Assembly (NCBI GenBank): GCA_022827885.1
Contig: JAJEIP010000067.1
Span: 1 to 33,495 of the forward strand
DNA from: Candidatus Poribacteria bacterium
GTDB taxonomy: Bacteria; Poribacteria; WGA-4E; WGA-3G
Direction: 5' to 3'
DNA: 33,495 nt
Below, one piece after another: positions 19,443-30,478 of the stretch. Under the pieces are notes generated by a model. It had not been told where the DNA came from and ran no database searches. It saw nothing but the letters and a program-made list of their open reading frames with translations. The translations under genes were made by a program, and so were the position numbers. The first letter of the stretch is position 1. Each line of letters starts with the position of its first letter.

Positions 19443-22400
19443 GTGAACAAAAAACCCAGACTTAAAAATGAGAGAATCTCTTTTGCCAAAACGAAGGTTC
19501 TTACCCCACTTCCGAACCTCATAGAGACCCAAAAACTCGCCTATGATGCCTTCTTACAACGAGATGTCCCACCTGATGAACGTTCGGATACTGGTCTCCA
19601 AGCGGTGTTTAAGGAAGTATTTCACACAGGAGACAAGAAAGGCATCCGCGACTTTTCGGAGGTTCACAGTCTCGATTTTGCCAGTTACACCCTTGGTGAA
19701 CCGAAATATACACTTCAAGAATGTGTTGCTCGTGGTGTAACGTATCAGGTATCCCTGACTGCCTGTATTATGCTTGTCCAACGGGCGGATGACTCGGATG
19801 CAGATGAACCGCATGTTGTGGATATCCGACAATCCGATGTATACCTCGGCGAAATTCCATTAATGACCGAAAATGGCAGTTTCATTGTCAACGGTAGCGA
19901 ACGCGTGATTGTGAGTCAATTGCACCGTTCGCCGGGTGTCATTTTTCTTGAAAAGGCATTACCGACCGGGCGGCGCACCCCGACTGCCCAAATTATTCCC
20001 TATCGAGGGGCATGGGTCGAATTTGAGATAGACACTAAAGATCAGATTTACGTACGCATTGACAAACGCAGAAAACTGCCTGCTACTGTGCTGCTGCGTG
20101 CCCTGGGTTGGGAATCAGACGCGGATATCCTGAAGCTTTACGCAAAGACGGAACGTCTTGTGCTTGCTGGATGGCAGGTTACCCATGTAGAAGGACCTGC
20201 AAAGCAAGTTAACCCTGGTGATTTGTTGAATCCTGCGGACTTTCGACAAGCCAGCAAAGACTATCCTGATCTTGAGGCAGAGAGGTGTTATCGCGTTACA
20301 GAGGTAACCGATGAAGACTGCCCACTGGAGGTCGAACAAGAACTGACATATAAGGAGCGGACGAACCTTCGTAGAAAATGGAAAGGCTTTGAAACTGAAC
20401 TTCTTCGGCGTGTGATTGACACCCACAATAGCGGGTGTGAGATCGTTACCGGACAAGTGTTAACGAATTCGGAATACGAAGAGGCGCGTGCCCGCCACGG
20501 AAGCGAAGCGTTCACAGCCGAACAGCTTGTGTCTCCAGATAATCAGGAATGGGTCGGTAGAGTCTGCGCTGAAGACGTTATCAATCAAGAAACTGGCGAA
20601 GTGCTCCTGACAGCGAATACGCTGCTCACCGAAACAGAATTGGAACGCCTCAGCGAGGCTGGTGTTGAGGCACTCACAATACTGGATGAGGAAGATTGCC
20701 AGCACATTCGATTCTTACGGAATACGTTGGAACGCGACCGACAAGCGGACTATGAGGAGCCGTATACTTTACAAGATGCCGCACTGATTGAGATTTTCCG
20801 CACGCTGAGACCTGGAGATCCCGCTGGTATAGAGAACGCTCGTAAACACCTTTCATGGTTGCTCTTTGACGCGCACCGATACGATTTAGGGGTCGTTGGA
20901 CGATACAAACTGAATCGAAAATTCAACGAAACCTGTCAATATTTCGGTTTGTGCCCGGATGATGTGCCTGGCTGGAAACCGGATGCGAAAATTGATTATG
21001 TGCCGACTTATGGAAATGCCCCCGAAGAGACGCTCCGAACGCAACGTCGCGAAGATATTGCTGCGACTATAGCTTACCTGCTTGATGTCCATAATGGGAT
21101 TAAACCGAAAGACGATCTGGATCATCTGGGTAATCGTCGCGTGCGTGTTATCGGTGAGCTCCTCGAAAACCAGTTTCGGATGGGTTTATTCCAGATTCGC
21201 AGAACCACCCGCGAACGCTTGAGTACCAACAACGATATTGCGAAAGTCGTCCCGTCTTCTCTCATAAATCCGAAACCGCTGATGATGGCACTTCGAGAAT
21301 TCTTTGGCTCGAACCAGTTGTCACAGTTTATGCAGCAGATTAATCCGCTGGATGAACTGACGCATAAACGCCGTATCTCAGCAATTGGTCCCGGTGGACT
21401 TCACCGAGATAGGGCAACGGCAGCTGTTCGGGATGTGCATCCAACACACTATGGACGCGTTTGTCCCTTGGAAACACCTGAAGGTCCGTCCATTGGTCTT
21501 ATCGTTTCTTTAGCGTGCTATGGACGGATAAACCCCTACGGTTTTATAGAAACGCCTTATCATAAGGTTGAGGATGGTTCAAAGGTAGGTCGGGTAGAAT
21601 ATCTCACAGCAGATAGCGAGGATACTGCGTATATTGCTGCGAAGCCTCCTCTAACGGATGCTGAACAGACCGGAAATGGTAAGGAATCGGGGTTACAAAC
21701 CCCTCCTGCAGAGTATACGCTGCCTGTACGCAGTGGTGAGGATGTCCTGTCGCTTCCCATGGAAAAGGTGGATTATATCGGGGTTTCCCCGCAGCAAATC
21801 GTTGGAATTTCCGCCGCGCTGGTTCCGTTCCTAGAACACGAGGACGCAAACCGTGCCTTGATGGGTGCTAACCACCAACGTCAGGCTGTACCGCTTGTCC
21901 GTCCAGAAGCCCCACTCGTGGGAACGGGGATGGAAGCCCCAGCTGCACTCTATTCAGGGGCACTCATTACCGCGAAGCGAGCCGGGACCGTCACGAGTGT
22001 TTCTGCCGATGAGATTCTCATATACACGGGTGAAACCCTTCACCATGATAAGGGTGAGAATACATTCAGCGAAATGGGCTACGATGTTTACAAACTCCAG
22101 ACCTTCAAACGCAGTAATAGCGGCACCTGTATCCACCAACGGCCTATCGTTGCAGTGGGCGACACAGTTGAAGTCGATCAGGTTATTGTGGATGGCACCT
22201 CTACAGAAAGTGGTGAACTCGCTCTTGGGCGGAATGTGCTATGTGCCTATATGCCGTGGGGTGGACACAATTATGAGGACTCTATCCTGATAAGCGAAAC
22301 GCTCATCAAAGAGGATACCTTCACCTCTATCCACATTGAGGAATTCGAAGTGGAGGCACGTGAAACGAAAGTAGGTCCAGAGGAGATCACCCGCGATATT

Positions 22401-24779
22401 CCGAACGTTAGCGACCAGCGTCTCACACAACTTGATGAAGAGGGGATTATTCGCGTTGGAAGCGTTGTGGGTGCTGGCAGCATCCTTGTCGGAAAAATTA
22501 CCCCCAAAGGTGAAAGCGAATCGGGTCCAGAAGAGAAACTCCTACGCGCGATCTTTGGCGAAAAAGTCAAAGAAGTAAGGGATGCCTCGACTTATGTGCG
22601 TCCCGGCGTTGAAGGTGTCGTCATTGACGTAAAAGTATTCTCTCGTAAACCGGATACCGCCTCCCGGCGTGGTGGTTGGTCCCAAGGCGACTCAGGCTTA
22701 TCCATGGCTGATAATTTGCGATATGAGTCGAAACGCAAGGAGATTGAAGAGGCCTCGCGTGAGCAGATCGCTTCCATCCGTCGCCGAAAAATCGAAGAGA
22801 TTCGCAAAACACTCATAGGATGCGAACTCGCTAATCCACTTTACACAAAAGAGGAATCGGGGTTAAAAACCCCTTCTACAGCTGAACCCTTTGCGAATGC
22901 TGGTGATACACTGACAGCTGAGGTTTTGGATGCCTATACTTCCGGTTTCACTGCAGATGCGTATCATCTGGTAACTGAAGACACAAACTCTGAAGCTTTT
23001 ATCGCTGAAGCAGGTTATAGGGTAACAGACATCCCTGAACCGATTCCTACTATTGTGGTCCACCCTTCAAATTCTTCAACCGTGCAAGCGTACCTCAGTG
23101 AGGTGTGCCAATCGACTTTGGGCAGTACAGAGCCATTCTTTCAGGAAACGGAACCTATAGATGGACATTTAGAAGATGCTGCTGTTGTGCTGCAGGGTTA
23201 CGATAACAGTGTAATTGCTATTGCTGTCTGTGAGGAATCGGGGTTGAAAACCCCTCCTACAGACGGGTATAATCTCGAACAGCTGCAGGAAATGCTTACT
23301 GCGGCGGGCACGCGATTCGGTGTATTGGTGCCCAAAGGTGCGTCAGAACCGGATAATTATGATTTCTATGAACTCGTGGATTTGACCAGCGACTCGGCTC
23401 CGACAGAAGACGCAGAAGCACAAGTTGCTGATCAAACTGTGTTGCAACCGTGCGCGCGTTCTGAATTTGAGACTGGCGTTACCGAACAGATTGAAGCAAC
23501 AGGATGCCCTGTCGTTGAAACGCAGCGACTGAATGAGGAAGAATGGGCGAACTTCAGCCAGGCTTACCCGGGTTTACAAGCGGATTTATTTTGGCAAATT
23601 AAGGAAGTTTTCAACCCCGAGTGTCCATTGACTGAAGGTCAAGAGTTGGCCGACGCCGACTATCTACGAGTATCCAGGGATTTTCCTGCGCGTCCTATAG
23701 TAGCCGGACAGCGTTTGACCACAGATGAACTGGCATCCCTCAATCGGACGACCAAGGATTTGAAAACCGACAAGGTCTGGCACATTACCGCGGTTTTTGA
23801 CCGAGCGTGTACACTGCCCGTTGGAGAATATGTTTCTGATGACGATTACCAACAAGCTCGTAAATCATATAGTTTGACGTTCTCAGACATCCATGTAACC
23901 GATGCCGAAGCCAGAGAACATATTCAACGTGTTGAAGAGATGGCGCAAGGCAGGATAACGACTTATACTGAAGAAAAAGAACGTGCCCTTCAGCAGTTAG
24001 AAATGGGTGATGAACTGAAACCAGGTGTCATCAAACGCGTCAAAGTTTATGTAGCGAGTAAGCGCCCGATCTCCGTCGGCGATAAGATGGCGGGTCGTTA
24101 CGGCAACAAAGGTGTTGTTGCCAAAATTTTGCCTGCTGAGGATATGCCCTATCTTCCAGATGGGACACCGGTTGAATTGGTATTAAACCCGTTAGGGGTC
24201 CCCTCTCGAATGAATGTCGGTCAAATTTTGGAAATTCATCTCGGATGGGCGTGCCATGAACTCGGTATCCGAGTGAAATCGCCTGTATTTGATGGTGCGA
24301 CAGAGGAAGAAATCTTTAAAGAACTTGGTAAGACCACGCTTCCCGAACGCAGTAAAAAGACGGGTAAAAGCATTCTCTTTGATGGTAGAACGGGTGAGCC
24401 ATTTGCACAGGAAGTAACGGTCGGCTACGTCTATTTCCTCAAGTTGAACCACCTTGTTGCGGATAAAATGCACGCTCGTTCAACGGGACCTTACTCTCTT
24501 GTTACACAGCAACCGTTAGGTGGCAAGGCGCAACACGGGGGTCAACGGCTCGGTGAGATGGAGGTTTGGGCATTGGAGGCGTATGGTGCAGCCCATACAC
24601 TGCAAGAAATGCTCACACTCAAATCAGATGACGTTCTGGGTAGAAGAGAGATTTACGAGTCGGTTGTGAAAGGGTTAAACCCTGAACCGCCCGGTACACC
24701 GGAATCTTTCAAAGTCTTGGTCCGCGAGCTCCAAACCCTTGGACTCCATGTATCCCTGGATAAAGAGGAGGAAAAATGA
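19443..24779 (+). CDS. rpoB: RNA polymerase beta subunit with large insertions
   Basis: RpoB forms one half of the RNAP active-site cleft. At 1778 aa it is about 440 longer than E. coli RpoB. The core is intact: rifampicin region QLSQFM...THKRRISAIGPGGL (625-652), GRVCPLETPEGPSIGL, DANRALMGAN, PWGGHNYEDSIL, GDKMAGRYGNKGVV (1546-1559) and GGKAQHGGQRLGEMEVWALEAYGAAHTL. Extra sequence: residues 244-357 (SI1 position, three copies of the 40-residue repeat before the normal VGRVCAEDVINQETGEV), about 1128-1500 (SI2 position, about four copies plus an unrecognised 200-residue part), and three short palindrome-derived pieces (ESGLxTP). Start is GTG with GGGAG 10 bases upstream. rpoC overlaps by ATGA. 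E. coli Asp516 and Asn518 correspond to Gln631 and Ile633. Confidence 0.97.
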   Translation: MNKKPRLKNERISFAKTKVLTPLPNLIETQKLAYDAFLQRDVPPDERSDTGLQAVFKEVFHTGDKKGIRDFSEVHSLDFASYTLGEPKYTLQECVARGVTYQVSLTACIMLVQRADDSDADEPHVVDIRQSDVYLGEIPLMTENGSFIVNGSERVIVSQLHRSPGVIFLEKALPTGRRTPTAQIIPYRGAWVEFEIDTKDQIYVRIDKRRKLPATVLLRALGWESDADILKLYAKTERLVLAGWQVTHVEGPAKQVNPGDLLNPADFRQASKDYPDLEAERCYRVTEVTDEDCPLEVEQELTYKERTNLRRKWKGFETELLRRVIDTHNSGCEIVTGQVLTNSEYEEARARHGSEAFTAEQLVSPDNQEWVGRVCAEDVINQETGEVLLTANTLLTETELERLSEAGVEALTILDEEDCQHIRFLRNTLERDRQADYEEPYTLQDAALIEIFRTLRPGDPAGIENARKHLSWLLFDAHRYDLGVVGRYKLNRKFNETCQYFGLCPDDVPGWKPDAKIDYVPTYGNAPEETLRTQRREDIAATIAYLLDVHNGIKPKDDLDHLGNRRVRVIGELLENQFRMGLFQIRRTTRERLSTNNDIAKVVPSSLINPKPLMMALREFFGSNQLSQFMQQINPLDELTHKRRISAIGPGGLHRDRATAAVRDVHPTHYGRVCPLETPEGPSIGLIVSLACYGRINPYGFIETPYHKVEDGSKVGRVEYLTADSEDTAYIAAKPPLTDAEQTGNGKESGLQTPPAEYTLPVRSGEDVLSLPMEKVDYIGVSPQQIVGISAALVPFLEHEDANRALMGANHQRQAVPLVRPEAPLVGTGMEAPAALYSGALITAKRAGTVTSVSADEILIYTGETLHHDKGENTFSEMGYDVYKLQTFKRSNSGTCIHQRPIVAVGDTVEVDQVIVDGTSTESGELALGRNVLCAYMPWGGHNYEDSILISETLIKEDTFTSIHIEEFEVEARETKVGPEEITRDIPNVSDQRLTQLDEEGIIRVGSVVGAGSILVGKITPKGESESGPEEKLLRAIFGEKVKEVRDASTYVRPGVEGVVIDVKVFSRKPDTASRRGGWSQGDSGLSMADNLRYESKRKEIEEASREQIASIRRRKIEEIRKTLIGCELANPLYTKEESGLKTPSTAEPFANAGDTLTAEVLDAYTSGFTADAYHLVTEDTNSEAFIAEAGYRVTDIPEPIPTIVVHPSNSSTVQAYLSEVCQSTLGSTEPFFQETEPIDGHLEDAAVVLQGYDNSVIAIAVCEESGLKTPPTDGYNLEQLQEMLTAAGTRFGVLVPKGASEPDNYDFYELVDLTSDSAPTEDAEAQVADQTVLQPCARSEFETGVTEQIEATGCPVVETQRLNEEEWANFSQAYPGLQADLFWQIKEVFNPECPLTEGQELADADYLRVSRDFPARPIVAGQRLTTDELASLNRTTKDLKTDKVWHITAVFDRACTLPVGEYVSDDDYQQARKSYSLTFSDIHVTDAEAREHIQRVEEMAQGRITTYTEEKERALQQLEMGDELKPGVIKRVKVYVASKRPISVGDKMAGRYGNKGVVAKILPAEDMPYLPDGTPVELVLNPLGVPSRMNVGQILEIHLGWACHELGIRVKSPVFDGATEEEIFKELGKTTLPERSKKTGKSILFDGRTGEPFAQEVTVGYVYFLKLNHLVADKMHARSTGPYSLVTQQPLGGKAQHGGQRLGEMEVWALEAYGAAHTLQEMLTLKSDDVLGRREIYESVVKGLNPEPPGTPESFKVLVRELQTLGLHVSLDKEEEK
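20172..20513 (+). other. three RNAP-type repeats at the beta SI1 position
   Basis: Residues 244-281, 282-320 and 321-357 of RpoB each begin with (W/Y)xVTxV or similar, then CPL or equivalent, an L(T/N)xxEY-like turn and often a WKGF/YPDL end. The best copy is CYRVTEVTDEDCPLEVEQEL at 282. They sit just before the conserved SI1 domain. Confidence 0.75.
21683..21707 (+). repeat. in-frame palindromic element, copy 1 in rpoB
   Basis: GGGGTT-ACA-AACCCC with flanks GGAATC and TCCT. It encodes ESGLQTPP (residues 748-755) in a region that is variable between beta subunits. Confidence 0.8.
22853..22880 (+). repeat. in-frame palindromic element, copy 2 in rpoB
   Basis: GGGGTT-AAA-AACCCC with flank GGAATC and TTCTACA. 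It encodes ESGLKTPST (residues 1138-1146) at the beginning of the SI2 insertion. Confidence 0.8.
23234..23262 (+). repeat. in-frame palindromic element, copy 3 in rpoB
   Basis: GGGGTT-GAA-AACCCC with flank GGAATC and TCCTACAG; flanking GTCTGT/ACAGAC extends the stem. It encodes ESGLKTPPT (residues 1265-1273). Same reading frame as the other two copies. Confidence 0.8.
23475..23882 (+). other. about four RNAP-type repeats at the beta SI2 position
   Basis: Residues 1345-1383, 1384-1418, 1419-1445 (partial) and 1446-1480. The clearest copy reads WQIKEVFNPECPLTEGQEL and the last WHITAVFDRACTLPVGEYV. They precede the coiled-coil that leads back to the conserved GDELKPGVIKRVKVYVASKR segment. Confidence 0.75.
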
Positions 24780-27700
24780 ACACGGCATTTGACAGTATCT
24801 CCATAAAGATAGCCTCGCCTGATCAGATTAAAGATGAATCGAAGCAGACCAGTTGCAAACGTCGGAATCCCACCCAAGGGGCGGATGAACCTTTTATCTG
24901 TCCCGAGAAAGGGACATGTAGTTGCGGCGAGGTCAAGAAGGCAGAGACTATTAACTACCGCTCCTTCCGTCCTGAACCGGACGGTCTCTTCTGTGAGGCT
25001 ATCTTTGGACCCCAAAAGGACTGGGAATGTAACTGTGGTAAGTATAAACGGATTAAACATAAGGGGATGATATGTGACGGTTGTGGTGTTGAAATCACAC
25101 AACAACGCGTTCGCAGAGATCGACTCGGATATATCCAACTTGCTGCCCCTGTATCTCATATATGGTACTTCAAAGGAATTCCTTCTCGTATCGGCACTTT
25201 TTGTGAACTCTCTTCACGTGACGTTGAGCGCGTGCTCTATTTTGAGGGGTTTATCGTCGTTGAAGTGACTGACCCCGAGTGTCCGCTTGAACGTGGACAG
25301 GTCTTAACCGAGATCGAGTACATAGACCACAGCAATAAGTACTGGGGCGGATTCCGGGCTGGCACTGGTGCAGAAGTTATTCGCGAATTACTGAGTGATA
25401 TCGACCTCGAGGCGGAGATAGAAAAATTAACGACAGAATTGAACGAAACAACGAGTCATCAGAAGAAGCTCAAGATCGCGAAGCAGCTGAAACAGATGGC
25501 TGATTTTGCAGAAATCGGGCAGCGACCGGAATGGATGATTTTGGATGTTATTCCTGTCATCCCGCCAGATTTACGTCCGCTTGTCCCTCTTGAAGGTGGC
25601 CGCTTTGCTACCAGCGACCTGAACGATCTGTATCGCCGTGTTATTAATCGGAACAACCGATTACGTAAATTGATACAACTCCGATCTCCAGAAGTCATCC
25701 TCCGTAACGAGAAACGGATGTTACAGGAAGCGGTCGACGCATTCTTCGACAACGGACGGCACGGTAGGCGTGTCACGGGTCCGGGGAACCGTCCGCTCAA
25801 ATCCCTGGCTGACGTTCTTAAGGGTAAGATTGGAAGGTTCCGTCAGAATCTGCTTGGTAAGCGGGTTGACTACTCTGGACGTAGCGTCATCGTTGTTGGA
25901 CCTGAATTGGGGTTGCATCAGTGTGGAATCCCGAAACGCATGGCTGTCGAATTGTTTAAGCCGTTCATTATTGAGCGACTCCAAGCGTATGGGTATACAC
26001 AGACAATTAAGCGTGCGAAGCATATTGCTGAACACGTTGATTCCGATTCTCCTGTATGGGAAGTTGTAGAAGAAGTCATTGCGGATCATCCGGTTTTACT
26101 CAACCGCCCGCCAACTTTGCACCGACTCGGTATTCAGGCATTTTTGCCGGTTTTGGTAGAGGGCAAGTCCATCAGGATTCCGCCACTTGTCTGTAAAGCG
26201 TTTAACGCTGACTTTGACGGTGACCAGATGGCAGTCCACGTGCCCCTGACCGTAGAAGCACAAGCCGAAGCAAAACTCCTCATGCTCAGCAGTCATAACA
26301 TTCTCAAGCCGTCACACGGTGATCCTGTTGCTGTTCCGGAGCTTGACATGGTGCTTGGGCCCAGTTTTCTGACCAAGACGTTGCCAGAGCACGCGGCGGA
26401 TGCGGCACTTCTGCATGATGTCTATACAACACGGGATCCTGCGACTTTTGAGGCACTCCGTGAAAAGGCGTGGTTCCATCGTCGTTACGCACACCCAGAA
26501 GAAGTCCTTACCGCGCATGCAGCAGGTCAACTGAAACTGCATGACAGTATCCAACTCTTCTGTGCATCTAATGGAGATGACCGGAAAACCACTGAACCCA
26601 TTCTCACAACAGTCGGCAGAGTTATCTTTAACGAGGTCCTGCCATCGGGTTTAGAGTGGGAAGATGAAAACTCCCAGCAGCGACTTCCGTTCTTCAATGC
26701 CGAAGCTGGAGGCAGGGAATTATCCGATTTGATTCATCGGTGTTTCAACGAACTGGGCACACGTGTCACGACTGAAGTGCTTGAGAAAGTCCAGAAACTC
26801 GCGTTTGAGTATGCCACGCTGAGCGGTATTTCGCCGAGCATTTCGGATTACATTATCCCCGACAATCGCGATGCTTTGGTGAGCAAAGCACAGGGAGATA
26901 TTGACGAACTCCTTAGCAACGTCACAGCGACCGAGCGCGAAGAACATGAAAACGAGCAGATTCGCATCTGGTTGGATGCCCTGAAAAAAGTTGAGGATGA
27001 GATGTTCGATGATTTGCCTCGGTTAGAGACATCTCTCGTTGAGCGCGGCGATCCTCGAAAAATTCACCCATACATCGATTCCGATGGGGCAGAGGTGCGC
27101 GACAAAACAGTAGAGGGTTTCAGTCCGGTACATATCATGGCAGATAGTGGCGCACGCGCACGGAAGAATCCATTTATGCAAATCAGTGCCGTTATCGGAT
27201 TGAAAGCGAAGCAGAGCGGTGAAATTCTCATCCCGCCGATCACCACCTCCTATCGTGATGGTCTGGATGTGCTTGACTACTTTAACTCTACCTATGGATC
27301 CCGTAAAGGTCTGGTGGATACGGCGATGAAAACCGCCGCATCGGGTTATCTGACTCGAAAACTCGTAGATGTGGCGCAAGATGTCCGTGTCACCACTGAA
27401 GACTGTGGTACCCTCAACAGCATTCAAAAATTTGCGACAGAGGGCGGCGACCTTGCTTTCAAAATTAGCGGACGGACCGCAGCAGAAGACATTTTCCACC
27501 CAGAGGACGGCGCGTTACTTGTTCCGGCGGGGACCGTCATATCCGCGCAGATGGCAGAACAGATTGATGCCCTTGGCATAAGCGTAGTAAAAGTGCGCTC
27601 TGTGCTCACGTGCCAAACCGACGATGGTATCTGTGCAAAATGCTACGGTAACGATTTAACGACGAATGATCTCGTCAACGTTGGTGAAGCGGTCGGCATC

Positions 27701-30478
27701 ATCGCTGCGCAGTCTATCGGTGAACCGGGGACGCAGCTTACGATGCGGACGTTCCACACGGGTGGTGCTGTTGAAGATGTTTCAGAAGCGCGGCAGCGCA
27801 GAATTTTGTCCAAAGCCAGCGGAACCGTGTATTTCCGAGATTTTGAACCCGGTCGGACGGTCGAAAAGGAGGGTGAACTCTGGATCGCTACTGAAAACAG
27901 AGGCAACCTTGACGGTCCAGCATATAAGGTCCAGAAGGTTAATCATCCGCATTGTCAATTGCGTGAAGGTGAACTGCTGAGCGAGAAGCAGTACACGGAA
28001 AACACGGAACGCTATAAAGGCTTTGATACAAAAACGTGGCAGTACGAAGTCACGGAGGTTTTGGATAGCGATTGTGATTTGAGGGCAGGGGAGCGGCTGT
28101 CTCATGCGGAATACGTCAAAGCACAGATGGAATATGGCTTCCAACGATTTGTGACCCCAAAATTCCGAGTGACACGCGTGCAACATCCTAAGCTTTCATT
28201 GAGTGTCGGCACCCAACTCACTGAAACAGAGATAGATCAATTGAAAGCAGAGGTCAGGCAGGGAGTGAGTGGAGAATGGCATTACTTGGATGCCGAAACA
28301 GGCGAGCGTATTGCTATTGAAAGCCTTACAGCCACTTCAGGTACTGCGTCTTCTGAGCGCACGAATGGTGCCTCTGATAGTTCTGATACTGCGAATGCCT
28401 CTGGACGAGATGCAAGCTTTAATCGTGTGTATTGTATAACCGAGATAGATAAGGGGACCAGCAAAGATTTCGGATTTAAGGTAGGAGACGAAGTTGCGCC
28501 AGAGGCAATCGCTCCGTTGCTGAACCCATTTGAGGTTGAGGCGAAACCGGTTTACGTTGTCCATAAAGAGGTTGGTGATTTTACAGTCGATCAGACGTTA
28601 ACGTCCCGTGAGTACGAGGATGCTCGCACAGCGTATCAACACCTTGAGCGCGCATTTAAAGTTGAAAAACAGGACGTTGAACGGCACTATGTGACGGCTG
28701 TGTATCATCCCGAATGTCCGCTTACAAAAGAGGAAGAATTAAGCGAAACAGCCTTAACCCGGGCACACAAACGGTTTACGGGTTTCGATGCTCAAAGGCT
28801 GCGCCACCGCATCACTCATATTTATCATCCTGACTGTCCGCTCAAGCCGGGCGATCTGATTAGCGATAGTGAAAAAAAACAGCTCGATGAACGCTATCCG
28901 GGGTTCACGACTTCGGAAAGTAAGCGCACCGCGGGCGGCTTTGCCGCGGAACGCATGTACCGTGTTACATCGGTTAATCATCCTGATTGTCCATTAGAAG
29001 TTGATGGTCTTTTGACCCAAAAGGAGTCATCCGCGAATCGCCGACACTACAAAGGCTTTGAAGTCTCACCTCACTACGAAGTGACCCACATCGAAGATGG
29101 AACGACAGCGTTAAGTGTCGGTCAACGTCTCACGGATATCGAGTATAAGGCACTCCGTAAGACGGATGCTTCGGTCCAAGACAAAGTCAAGAAAGTATAT
29201 CATGTCGTTAGTGTCCATCACCCTGAATTGGAAGATCACCCTGAATTGAAGGTTGAGACTGAACTGAGTGAAGAGGACTATAAGTCGTATCATCGCCAAT
29301 TCAAAGGGTTTGATGTTGAACTGGTTTATCAGGTAACTGAGGATAAGCGGGATGTTGATGAACCGCTTGAGGTTGGGACGATTCTGCCCGCGAAGGAATA
29401 CCGTGCGCTTGAGAAGGCAAATTTACAGATAACTCACACTGTCACCGAAGTCTCTCATCCGCATTTCCAATACGCTGTTGGCGACGAGTTGTCCGAAGAA
29501 GTGTATAATGAGGCAGTAAAACGGTCCCCCGGATTCGAGGTCGATGAATTGTCGTTACGGATGCGCATTGAAGTAGAAATATCGGATGGAAATCGGGTGC
29601 CGCATGTCATTCCTACGGGTTACTCCTTCTCTCTAACAGAGGGTGATAGCATTCGGAAGGGAGAAACGCTGGCAGAACTCCATGAGAGAACAGCGAACCT
29701 TGACATTGTTGCGGGGATTCCGCGTGTCACCGAATTGTTTGAAGCGCGCCGTCCGAAACGTGGTGAAGCCGCAGAAATCGCTGAAATTGAAGGTTACGTC
29801 CAATCTGCTGGCACGAAGTCAGGGATTCCTGCCTACCGCATTGAGCACGGGACATATCAAAGTCGTCTCTATCAGATACCTGATGAGAAGCGACGCGTGG
29901 CTGAAGGCGACTGGGTGAATGCCGGTGAACCTCTTACCGATGGCTATCTCAATCCACACGACATTTTGAGTATCGGGCGGACGACGATTGAAGGTGTACC
30001 GGTTGAGGGAGAAGAGGCGGTCTGGTCATATCTCGTTGATGAAGTCCAGAAAGTCTACGGCAAGGGGACTATTAACGATAAACACGTTGAGGCAATCGTT
30101 CGACAGATGCTAACGAAGATTCGGATCACTGAGCCGGGCGACACAAACTTCTATCCCAACGATGAAGTGCAACGCAAGCAATTTGAACGCGTTAATAGTG
30201 AGATTGAAGAAACAGGTGGCATGCCTGCCGCGGGTGAACCGATTCTCCAAAGCATAAGTAAGGCAGCCTTGAGTACAGATAGCTTCATCTCCGCTGCCTC
30301 CTTCCAGCAGACGACGAAGGTGCTAACGGATGCCGCTGTCAGTGGACAAACCGATAAACTCTTCGGGCTGAAGGAAAACGTTATTCTCGGTAGACTTATA
30401 CCCGCTGGCAGTGGATTCTCCAGTTTCCAAAACTTAGAGGTCTCCGCCATTGAACCAGAAATAGGCGAAGATGATTAG
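24776..30478 (+). CDS. rpoC: RNA polymerase beta-prime subunit with very large trigger-loop insertion
   Basis: RpoC carries the catalytic Mg site, NADFDGDQMAVH with Asp479, Asp481 and Asp483. At 1900 aa it is about 490 longer than E. coli RpoC and 700 longer than B. subtilis RpoC. In order: short N-terminal part with an insertion (21-48), zinc site C85/C87/C100/C103, VLYFEGF and one native repeat-like module (158-200), rudder and lid, the active site, bridge helix region, second zinc site (C877 region, C946, C953, C956), AAQSIGEPGTQLTMRTFHTGG, then an insertion of about 640 residues (about 1000-1640) in the trigger loop, and the normal end LFEARRPKRG to GSGFSSFQNLEVS. The start overlaps rpoB by ATGA. 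No frameshift is seen. Confidence 0.97.
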   Translation: MNTAFDSISIKIASPDQIKDESKQTSCKRRNPTQGADEPFICPEKGTCSCGEVKKAETINYRSFRPEPDGLFCEAIFGPQKDWECNCGKYKRIKHKGMICDGCGVEITQQRVRRDRLGYIQLAAPVSHIWYFKGIPSRIGTFCELSSRDVERVLYFEGFIVVEVTDPECPLERGQVLTEIEYIDHSNKYWGGFRAGTGAEVIRELLSDIDLEAEIEKLTTELNETTSHQKKLKIAKQLKQMADFAEIGQRPEWMILDVIPVIPPDLRPLVPLEGGRFATSDLNDLYRRVINRNNRLRKLIQLRSPEVILRNEKRMLQEAVDAFFDNGRHGRRVTGPGNRPLKSLADVLKGKIGRFRQNLLGKRVDYSGRSVIVVGPELGLHQCGIPKRMAVELFKPFIIERLQAYGYTQTIKRAKHIAEHVDSDSPVWEVVEEVIADHPVLLNRPPTLHRLGIQAFLPVLVEGKSIRIPPLVCKAFNADFDGDQMAVHVPLTVEAQAEAKLLMLSSHNILKPSHGDPVAVPELDMVLGPSFLTKTLPEHAADAALLHDVYTTRDPATFEALREKAWFHRRYAHPEEVLTAHAAGQLKLHDSIQLFCASNGDDRKTTEPILTTVGRVIFNEVLPSGLEWEDENSQQRLPFFNAEAGGRELSDLIHRCFNELGTRVTTEVLEKVQKLAFEYATLSGISPSISDYIIPDNRDALVSKAQGDIDELLSNVTATEREEHENEQIRIWLDALKKVEDEMFDDLPRLETSLVERGDPRKIHPYIDSDGAEVRDKTVEGFSPVHIMADSGARARKNPFMQISAVIGLKAKQSGEILIPPITTSYRDGLDVLDYFNSTYGSRKGLVDTAMKTAASGYLTRKLVDVAQDVRVTTEDCGTLNSIQKFATEGGDLAFKISGRTAAEDIFHPEDGALLVPAGTVISAQMAEQIDALGISVVKVRSVLTCQTDDGICAKCYGNDLTTNDLVNVGEAVGIIAAQSIGEPGTQLTMRTFHTGGAVEDVSEARQRRILSKASGTVYFRDFEPGRTVEKEGELWIATENRGNLDGPAYKVQKVNHPHCQLREGELLSEKQYTENTERYKGFDTKTWQYEVTEVLDSDCDLRAGERLSHAEYVKAQMEYGFQRFVTPKFRVTRVQHPKLSLSVGTQLTETEIDQLKAEVRQGVSGEWHYLDAETGERIAIESLTATSGTASSERTNGASDSSDTANASGRDASFNRVYCITEIDKGTSKDFGFKVGDEVAPEAIAPLLNPFEVEAKPVYVVHKEVGDFTVDQTLTSREYEDARTAYQHLERAFKVEKQDVERHYVTAVYHPECPLTKEEELSETALTRAHKRFTGFDAQRLRHRITHIYHPDCPLKPGDLISDSEKKQLDERYPGFTTSESKRTAGGFAAERMYRVTSVNHPDCPLEVDGLLTQKESSANRRHYKGFEVSPHYEVTHIEDGTTALSVGQRLTDIEYKALRKTDASVQDKVKKVYHVVSVHHPELEDHPELKVETELSEEDYKSYHRQFKGFDVELVYQVTEDKRDVDEPLEVGTILPAKEYRALEKANLQITHTVTEVSHPHFQYAVGDELSEEVYNEAVKRSPGFEVDELSLRMRIEVEISDGNRVPHVIPTGYSFSLTEGDSIRKGETLAELHERTANLDIVAGIPRVTELFEARRPKRGEAAEIAEIEGYVQSAGTKSGIPAYRIEHGTYQSRLYQIPDEKRRVAEGDWVNAGEPLTDGYLNPHDILSIGRTTIEGVPVEGEEAVWSYLVDEVQKVYGKGTINDKHVEAIVRQMLTKIRITEPGDTNFYPNDEVQRKQFERVNSEIEETGGMPAAGEPILQSISKAALSTDSFISAASFQQTTKVLTDAAVSGQTDKLFGLKENVILGRLIPAGSGFSSFQNLEVSAIEPEIGEDD
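24899..24916 (+). repeat. palindrome inside an N-terminal insertion of rpoC
   Basis: TGTCCC-GAGAAA-GGGACA lies in the segment coding residues about 21-48, which has no counterpart in E. coli RpoC. The segment adds Cys27, Cys42, Cys48 and Cys50 just ahead of the usual zinc site. Confidence 0.5.
25247..25375 (+). other. native beta-prime module resembling the repeat
   Basis: Residues 158-200 of RpoC read GFIVVEVTDPECPLERGQVL, then TEIEY, then a GGF turn and TGAE. E. coli RpoC has the equivalent segment ([20 protein letters not shown]), so this copy is ancestral; it matches the amplified repeat closely. Confidence 0.75.
27920..29557 (+). other. twelve RNAP-type repeats in the beta-prime trigger-loop insertion
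   Basis: Residues 1049-1594 contain units starting at about 1049, 1089, 1129, 1218, 1259, 1304, 1344, 1394, 1433, 1474, 1517 and 1554. The best conserved have YxVTxVxHPxCPL, a Gly, L(T/S)xxEY and YxGF spaced over about 40 residues. A Ser/Thr-rich linker (about 1183-1215) separates units 3 and 4. The block lies between ASGTVYFRDF and IEVEISDGNRVPHVIPTGY, two halves of what looks like one sandwich-barrel-hybrid module. Confidence 0.8.

What the first reader, a model, noticed from the sequence alone, without database searches (positions are those of the whole stretch)
27920..29557. Twelve-copy repeat array inside the beta-prime trigger loop
Seen: after the conserved MRTFHTGG segment, RpoC carries about 640 extra residues, and 546 of them divide into 12 units of about 40 residues sharing YxVTxVxHPxCPL, L(T/S)xxEY and YxGF. 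Known: the trigger loop is a hot spot for lineage-specific insertions (SI3 in E. coli, a much longer one in cyanobacteria), normally made of sandwich-barrel-hybrid modules. Here a different module is repeated and appears to be inserted within one such barrel. Inference: the array may project from the secondary channel side and act in pausing, cleavage-factor access or binding of a partner. I do not know a described RNAP with this array.
Basis: partly seen in the sequence, partly recalled or inferred. Interest (0 to 1): 0.88.

Follow-up and report, generated by a model that had tools for sequence, protein, structure and literature searches.

The report
RNA polymerase trigger loop repeat arm
In one family of Poribacteria, the moving catalytic loop of RNA polymerase carries about a dozen tandem copies of one of the polymerase's own small modules, and in some relatives copies of that module together with predicted DNA-cutting domains have been inserted at other places in the polymerase genes.

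Summary
RpoC (24776-30478) carries ~640 extra residues in the trigger loop: 11 profile-detectable ~35-40-residue units plus one decayed unit, apparently inside the hairpin loop of one remaining SI3-type barrel. The module is not unknown: a profile built from array units alone recovers the native beta' module near residue 160 ('sLC', beta'-bD2) in relatives and in solved beta' chains, and the predicted unit fold matches beta' bD2 and bD7. The array is in all 55 family genomes where rpoC was found (10-18 units in the 52 measured) and in none of 21 relatives outside the family, 19 of which have an ordinary ~190-250-residue SI3. It is under purifying selection; its length is 625-627 residues in 15 of 15 species of one genus. 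Its size equals or exceeds cyanobacterial Si3 (645 residues, 'largest known'). I think it is a trigger-loop-mounted arm like cyanobacterial Si3; function is inferred, not shown. Unexpectedly, sLC units also occur in in-frame cassettes with nuclease-like domains at several other rpoB/rpoC sites, with ~95%-identical empty alleles in a sister species. The window's own RpoB seems to carry a decayed one. The array may descend from such insertions.

The parts
24776..30478 (+). rpoC, beta' subunit, 1900 aa
   Evidence: TIGR02386 rpoC 1438 bits
19443..24779 (+). rpoB, beta subunit, 1778 aa, overlapping rpoC by 4 bases
   Evidence: TIGR02013 rpoB 1580 bits
27743..27766 (+). N-terminal trigger-loop segment MRTFHTGG (residues 990-997)
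27818..27904 (+). first half of the SI3 barrel (SBHM/HABAS-like), residues 1015-1043
   Evidence: by-eye alignment to the second barrel of relatives with an ordinary SI3
27923..29539 (+). array of 12 sLC-like units, residues 1050-1588
27923..28027 (+). unit 1
   Evidence: E 1.5e-15
28043..28144 (+). unit 2 (the unit that carries a nuclease domain in relative G026)
   Evidence: E 1.1e-13
28163..28264 (+). unit 3
   Evidence: E 9.1e-12
28418..28531 (+). unit 4, decayed; seen in orthologues and in the model, coordinates approximate
28556..28648 (+). unit 5, weak
   Evidence: residues 1261-1291; leave-one-out not above shuffles
28685..28789 (+). unit 6
   Evidence: E 3.4e-14
28805..28909 (+). unit 7
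   Evidence: E 1.0e-16
28958..29062 (+). unit 8
   Evidence: E 4.7e-16
29075..29179 (+). unit 9
   Evidence: E 3.7e-11
29198..29314 (+). unit 10
   Evidence: E 2.3e-7
29327..29419 (+). unit 11, marginal in leave-one-out
   Evidence: E 7.0e-8
29435..29539 (+). unit 12
   Evidence: E 1.6e-13
29558..29692 (+). second half of the SI3 barrel, residues 1595-1639
   Evidence: by-eye alignment to relatives
29702..29749 (+). C-terminal trigger-loop helix DIVAGIPRVTELFEAR (residues 1643-1658); the family has (A/V)(G/S)IPR where relatives have (T/S/M)GLPR
25250..25360 (+). native sLC module beta'-bD2 (residues 159-195)
   Evidence: hit by array-only profiles (E 3.4e-9; E 1.6e-8)
20172..20669 (+). sLC-like units in RpoB residues 244-409 (probably the betai4 site; site name is inference)
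   Evidence: four hits, 3.6 to 37.3 bits
23061..23495 (+). RpoB residues ~1207-1351: probably a decayed restriction-endonuclease-like domain
   Evidence: overlaps the homology to a free-standing nuclease-like protein (E 1e-28); REase folds head the second-look structural list, best Z 7.0; no direct Pfam or Foldseek support
23595..23873 (+). sLC-like units in RpoB residues 1385-1477 (probably the betai9 site; site name is inference)
   Evidence: 14.6 and 17.9 bits

Best explanation
Shown: the array is a tandem amplification of the RNAP's own small sLC module (the beta'-bD2/bD7 type) in the trigger loop. It occurs throughout one Poribacteria family and is kept by purifying selection. Shown by eye only: it splits the single SI3 barrel that remains there. 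Inferred: it forms an arm of about 60 kDa, mounted on the trigger loop through that barrel and lying outside the active centre, which moves when the trigger loop folds. By its place and size it should do what cyanobacterial Si3 does by other means: occupy the secondary-channel rim and reach along the enzyme toward the lobe or sigma, so tuning trigger-loop folding (pausing, cleavage) and initiation-complex stability. Inferred origin: in-frame insertion of sLC units, of the kind seen in rpoB and rpoC of relatives together with nuclease domains, later kept for use.
For: Identity: profiles made only from array units hit native beta'-bD2 in the window (E 3.4e-9), in 11 of 21 relatives outside the family at E 1.3e-6 or better, and in B. 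subtilis beta' at residues 141-162 (E 7.6e-4); 5 of the 10 listed PDB hits are beta', all at this place, the other four of them at E 0.048-1.9. In the second-look structural list 49 of 50 rows are RNAP entries (many are the same protein); the unit lies on E. coli beta' 140-181 (rmsd 1.1-2.3 A over 39-41 residues, 27-29% identity) or on the bD7 region. Place: most relatives have two uninterrupted barrels; the family keeps what looks like the second, split by the array (by eye). Retention: present in 55 of 55 family genomes with rpoC (52 measured intact, 3 seen in part), 0 of 21 outside. Constraint: dN/dS 0.11-0.22; 625-627 residues in 15 of 15 species of genus g19, 625-674 in 43 of all 52 measured; units mostly keep position within the genus. 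MRTFHTGG intact in the window; GIPR/SIPR replaces GLPR in all 52. Si3 analogy: 645 residues, shields the secondary channel, swings with the trigger loop (PMC10802570, passages), arches to sigma (PMC10120043, abstract).
Against: No functional data. In cyanobacteria the swing of Si3 did not markedly alter catalysis (PMC10802570, passages), which weakens the 'tuning' part of the analogy. GreA is absent from all 30 poribacterial genomes searched, 11 of them without the array, so its loss is not tied to the array. Primary sigma shows no obvious family-specific feature that would mate with an arm (5 of 17 sigma genes were not extracted by my script). The array has 1.2 to 6 times the dN/dS of the N-terminal core, and some species have 14 or 18 units, so the reach is not fixed across the family. 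The second-look Z-scores (4.5-5.6) are below the level the tool calls safe; the unit that fills that list (model 63-105, unit 1) is itself modelled at pLDDT about 49-61; Foldseek gave no significant hit. The barrel halves are not modelled with confidence, so rigidity of the whole arm is a guess.
Confidence: 0.55

Rival explanations
1. The array is mainly a fossil of selfish in-frame insertions: nuclease-bearing sLC cassettes that home into rpoB/rpoC, decay by losing the nuclease, and leave tolerated sLC repeats with no function of their own.
For: MTES_1575 nuclease domains above Pfam cut-off in three RpoC inserts at three sites (G026 inside array unit 2, E 1.9e-23; G075 8.4e-23 and G002 8.3e-20); empty alleles in a sister species (G074 v G075, flanks ~95% DNA identity); sLC units in all five cassettes tested (E down to 2e-16); a decayed nuclease-like domain beside sLC units in the window's RpoB.
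Against: dN/dS 0.11-0.22, near-constant length in 15 of 15 g19 species and no loss in 55 family genomes with rpoC are not what an unselected remnant shows; the rest of the same reading frame is essential, so frame retention alone proves nothing.
Confidence: 0.28
2. The array is a docking scaffold: many copies of a small module that each bind a partner protein or nucleic acid near the polymerase, with trigger-loop attachment incidental.
For: Tandem repeats of one module with a shared HPxC/LTxxEY/GF core; similar units also in RpoB in two of the three genera; acidic, net charge about -28.
Against: Repeats diverge between positions but are mostly kept position by position within the genus, unlike a set of equivalent binding sites; no partner identified; no unit outside RpoB and RpoC in the own genome at E<1.
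Confidence: 0.15
3. It is an ordinary SI3 barrel array, or an assembly artefact.
For: SI3 barrels are the usual trigger-loop insertion; the window comes from an assembly in 148 contigs.
Against: Units match sLC, not the barrel; the array is in genomes of one to four contigs too (G005, G010, G018, G022, G028, G063, G081).
Confidence: 0.02

Closest known systems
sLC ('small left claw') domains beta'-bD2 and beta'-bD7, CATH 3.30.60.280 (PMC11515920)
   Same: Sequence profile and predicted fold of array units match these core beta' domains.
   Different: In type 1 bacterial beta' they occur once each at core sites; here 10-18 tandem extra copies sit in the trigger loop.
Cyanobacterial Si3 (PMC10802570, PMC10120043)
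   Same: Trigger-loop insertion of about 640 residues built at the SI3 site; Gre factors are also lacking in cyanobacteria (PMC7026648, abstract in search listing).
   Different: Si3 is 8 SBHM barrels; here one barrel carries sLC units, and some species reach about 840-920 residues.
E. coli SI3 / beta'i6
   Same: Same insertion site; barrel platform.
   Different: Two barrels, 188 residues (PMC2939025, passages), no sLC array. Most relatives of the window outside the family have this ordinary form.
betai4 with predicted tandem BBM2 repeats (PMC2939025 citing Iyer et al.)
   Same: Lineage-specific tandem modules in an RNAP large subunit, predicted one to six copies.
   Different: Other subunit and differently named module; relation of BBM1/BBM2 to sLC was not tested; Iyer et al. 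was not read.
Inteins and homing endonucleases (for the cassettes only; general knowledge recalled)
   Same: In-frame, nuclease-bearing insertion in an essential gene with empty alleles in a sister species.
   Different: No Hint splicing domain among Pfam hits of four cassettes; sLC modules follow the nuclease instead.

Membership tests
sLC module (beta'-bD2/bD7) | Sequence similarity to native bD2 | tested here: met
   Array-only profile: own RpoC 161-182 E 3.4e-9; 11 of 21 relatives outside the family at E 1.3e-6 or better, the other 10 between 1.5e-4 and no hit; B. subtilis beta' E 7.6e-4.
sLC module (beta'-bD2/bD7) | Same small alpha/beta fold | tested here: met
   Predicted unit on E. coli beta' 140-181, rmsd 1.1-2.3 A over 39-41 residues; Z 4.5-5.5 and unit pLDDT about 49-61, so moderate.
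SI3 (beta'i6) | Inserted in the trigger loop between MRTFH(T/I)GG and the (G/S)(L/I)PR segment | tested here: met
SI3 (beta'i6) | Made of sandwich-barrel-hybrid (HABAS) domains | tested here: not met
   The array units are sLC-like; only the flanks look like one barrel, by eye, and are modelled at pLDDT under 40.
Cyanobacterial Si3 | Size around 640 residues | tested here: met
   Trigger-loop gap 625-934 residues in 52 family genomes against 645 for Si3.
Cyanobacterial Si3 | Eight SBHM barrels | tested here: not met
Cyanobacterial Si3 | Covers the secondary channel, contacts sigma, swings with the trigger loop | not testable with these tools
   Needs a structure of the whole enzyme.
BEAN / BBM modules | BEAN fold (CATH 3.90.105.10) and TGD/E motif | not tested
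   No BEAN profile was built.
Intein (for cassettes) | Hint splicing domain | tested here: not met
   No Hint family among Pfam hits of four cassettes at E up to 0.1.
Homing-type mobile insert (for cassettes) | Filled and empty alleles in close relatives, with a nuclease in the insert | tested here: met
   G075 rpoC filled, G074 empty; G074 rpoB filled, G075 empty. Nuclease family above cut-off in 3 inserts, sub-threshold in G003, by eye only in G074.
Homing-type mobile insert (for cassettes) | Nuclease cuts the empty allele | not testable with these tools
   Needs an enzyme assay.

The most novel reading that the evidence does not exclude
RNAP genes of this family are colonised by a new kind of mobile element: an in-frame cassette of short repeats, a nuclease domain (MTES_1575-, HsdR-N-like or HNH-like) and sLC modules that folds as part of the mature polymerase instead of splicing out. 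The trigger-loop array and the RpoB inserts in the window are domesticated descendants.
Probability: 0.4. Interest if true: 0.93.

Novelty: new variant of a known kind. Interest (0 to 1): 0.76.

Why it matters
The trigger loop is among the most constrained moving parts of RNA polymerase. Hanging about 60 kDa or more of tandem sLC modules on it, with a different building block from cyanobacterial Si3, gives a second natural test of whether big trigger-loop arms serve a common need. The nuclease-bearing cassettes, present in one sister species and absent from the other, could also show how lineage-specific insertions in RNAP arise in the first place.

Tried and rejected
Ordinary SI3 barrel array: rejected, the units match sLC.

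Replacement of Gre/DksA by the array: not supported. GreA domains are absent from all 30 genomes tested (controls 9 of 14), DksA-type zinc finger from 29 of 30 (controls 5 of 14), with or without the array.

Sigma partner: primary sigma of 12 of 17 genomes aligned (5 not extracted by my pattern); nothing array-specific that I could name.

A first iterated profile had taken in native modules of the genus, so it was not used for the homology claim; searches use array units only. A three-unit alignment for structure prediction was dropped, because the aligner shifted the register. Foldseek gave no significant hit for either model; only the second-look aligner was informative. Pfam did not find the RpoB flap domain directly (best E 0.21) nor an HNH family in the G074 insert (treble-clef 0.027). 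No relative of the array in phage or plasmid records or viral contigs. Lane and Darst 2010 was not held (DOI recalled); Iyer et al. 2004 was not read. Novelty rests on paper searches in open-licence papers only.

Rows left out of counts: G034, G064, G065 (no rpoC match), and G021, G027, G073 (array split or frame-broken; counted as present, not measured). The 'out' line says 22 because it took in the G021 fragment; the relatives outside the family are 21. E-values use a fixed search size of 60 sequences; those a two-sequence search.
Full report
What is there. The window lies in a Poribacteria genome: the named relatives hit by the array are all labelled Poribacteria (7 of 7 loci). rpoB and rpoC overlap by four bases and both match their families. 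Ten neighbouring ORFs scanned are ordinary metabolic, protease or translation genes, such as EF-G and fatty-acid synthesis. RpoC has 651 residues between RTFHTGG and PRVTELFEAR. An 11-unit profile, leave-one-out shuffles and orthologues support 11 units plus a decayed twelfth; two of the 11 are weak on their own.

What the unit is. A profile from array units only finds the native beta' module near residue 160: in the window; in 11 of 21 relatives outside the family at E 1.3e-6 or better, one more at 1.5e-4, the rest weaker or none; and in B. subtilis beta' (E 7.6e-4). Four more beta' chains are listed at the same place with E 0.048-1.9; the other five PDB hits are unrelated proteins at E 0.11 or worse. 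The predicted model (mean pLDDT 59; 40 of the 53 ten-residue blocks over the array at 60-86, the rest 28-59, among them unit 1 and the stretches around units 4 and 5; barrel flanks under 40) repeats strand-strand-helix-strand. In the second-look alignment 49 of 50 rows are RNAP entries, many of the same protein. The unit falls on E. coli beta' 140-181 (Z 4.5-5.5, rmsd 1.1-2.3 A) or on the bD7 region of several species; one RNAP row has a meaningless rmsd of 18.6 A, and the best-matched unit is unit 1, which is modelled at only about 49-61. Alvarez-Carreno et al. (PMC11515920, parts 1-3 of 6 and passages seen) state that bD2 and bD7 are homologous and name them sLC. So sequence and predicted fold both point to sLC.

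Where it sits. Most relatives in other families have two barrels in the trigger loop, as E. coli does. In the window the segment resembling the second barrel is split by the array between GELWIATENRG and RMRIEVEISDG, and the first barrel appears lost. This is by-eye alignment. Two relatives (G037, G040) have a different insert of about 170 residues at the same loop, so the loop is permissive.

Distribution. In the phylum search (84 genomes), 55 of 58 family-f1 genomes have 8-20 unit matches; the other three (G034, G064, G065) gave no rpoC match either. Outside f1, 12 of 26 genomes have one match and 14 have none. The places of those 12 were not listed; in the 11 of the same order the array-only profile finds native bD2 in RpoC and nothing in the trigger loop, and the twelfth, G061, was not examined. 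Trigger-loop gaps: g1 629-934 (35 measured), g18 853 and 856, g19 625-627 (15 of 15). Outside the family 21 were measured: 189-248 in 19, and 380 and 399 in two, G037 and G040. None of these 21 trigger loops has a unit. The largest array, G004, has 18 units at E<1. Cyanobacterial Si3, 645 residues, is called the largest known (PMC10802570, passages).

Selection. Against ten congeners the array has dN/dS 0.11-0.22, the N-terminal core 0.03-0.15 (several pairs are saturated in dS). Units mostly correspond by position within the genus, but only some do across genera. The family-wide GIPR/SIPR for GLPR change in the C-terminal trigger helix goes with the array; its effect is unknown.

Other sLC copies in RNAP. 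In the own genome all unit matches at E<1 lie in RpoC (array and native bD2) or RpoB. RpoB carries units at 244-409 (also in g18) and 1385-1477 (g1); the three g19 RpoBs scanned have none. Hence the trigger-loop array is the oldest expansion by distribution.

Cassettes. Six proteins combine sLC units with a nuclease-like domain: RpoC of G026 (inside array unit 2; MTES_1575 E 1.9e-23), of G075 (8.4e-23) and of G002 (8.3e-20); RpoB of G003 (HSDR_N_2 0.0078, below cut-off) and of G074 (HNH-like motif by eye only; Pfam treble-clef 0.027); and a free 851-aa protein of G010 (HSDR_N_2 5.6e-4, below cut-off, with TPRs). The array profile finds units in the sLC parts of the five cassettes tested (G002, G003, G010, G074, G075). 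G074 and G075 are reciprocal filled and empty alleles for rpoB and rpoC at ~95% flank DNA identity. In G026, 31 bases of the G000 gene are replaced by 583, at 85-87% flank identity. Insert GC is 3-6 points below the host gene in the four inserts measured. The window's RpoB 1246-1514 is homologous to the G010 protein (E 1e-28), and the model of that insert is headed by restriction-endonuclease folds (BpuSI Z 7.0), though that Z is within what the tool calls common, and Foldseek found nothing significant. The ExK of the G010 copy reads VCE in the window, by eye. MTES_1575-like stretches also lie in long ORFs of 1566-1857 aa elsewhere, a possible source. Not every insertion is of this kind: G078 RpoC has an unrelated one.

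Mechanism. The trigger-loop motif is intact and the array seems attached through a barrel, so catalysis should be kept while the trigger loop drags an arm. Near-constant length in g19 argues for a defined shape. Cyanobacterial Si3 shields the secondary channel, swings with the trigger loop and arches to sigma, yet its swing did not markedly change catalysis. I infer a similar arm here (0.55), later use of what began as inserted modules. An unselected fossil is the main rival (0.28). GreA is missing with or without the array, so the array is not simply its replacement.

Novelty. A trigger-loop sLC array is not described in the papers I could search. The kind, a lineage-specific RNAP insertion, is known; the variant is new. 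The nuclease cassettes would be a further novelty if mobility were shown.

Noticed in passing
L036 (G026 rpoC): REase_MTES_1575 nuclease domain in frame inside unit 2 of the trigger-loop array; D and ExD residues look intact by eye.
   Followed up: partly
L095 (G075 rpoC) against L094 (G074); L172 (G074 rpoB) against L173 (G075): In-frame cassettes of ~420-450 aa with empty alleles in the sister species, ~95% DNA identity in the flanks.
   Followed up: partly
L065 (G002 rpoC C-terminal part), L114 (G003 rpoB), L064 (G020 rpoC, second bD2-like copy): Further sLC units or cassettes at other sites of the RNAP large subunits.
   Followed up: partly
L104 562-3117 (-), G010: Free-standing 851-aa protein with HsdR-N-like domain (below cut-off), sLC units and TPRs, homologous to the RpoB insert of the window.
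   Followed up: partly
L098 (G078 rpoC): Unrelated, apparently helical insertion of ~360 aa before the trigger loop.
   Followed up: partly
L056, L058 (G037, G040 rpoC): A different ~170-residue insert at the same SI3 barrel loop.
   Followed up: no
e.g. G041:C20, G045:C61, G005:C1:6381908: Second, shorter RpoC-like ORFs of ~1020-1100 aa in many relatives, for G041 and G045 with RpoB-like sequence in a frame of the same length beside it; possibly a second RNAP.
   Followed up: no
L131-L134 (g19 primary sigma): 22-residue insertion in sigma region 4 in the four g19 sigmas aligned, absent from the other eight.
   Followed up: no
30 poribacterial genomes: No GreA/GreB domains found in any, DksA-type zinc finger in 1.
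   Followed up: partly
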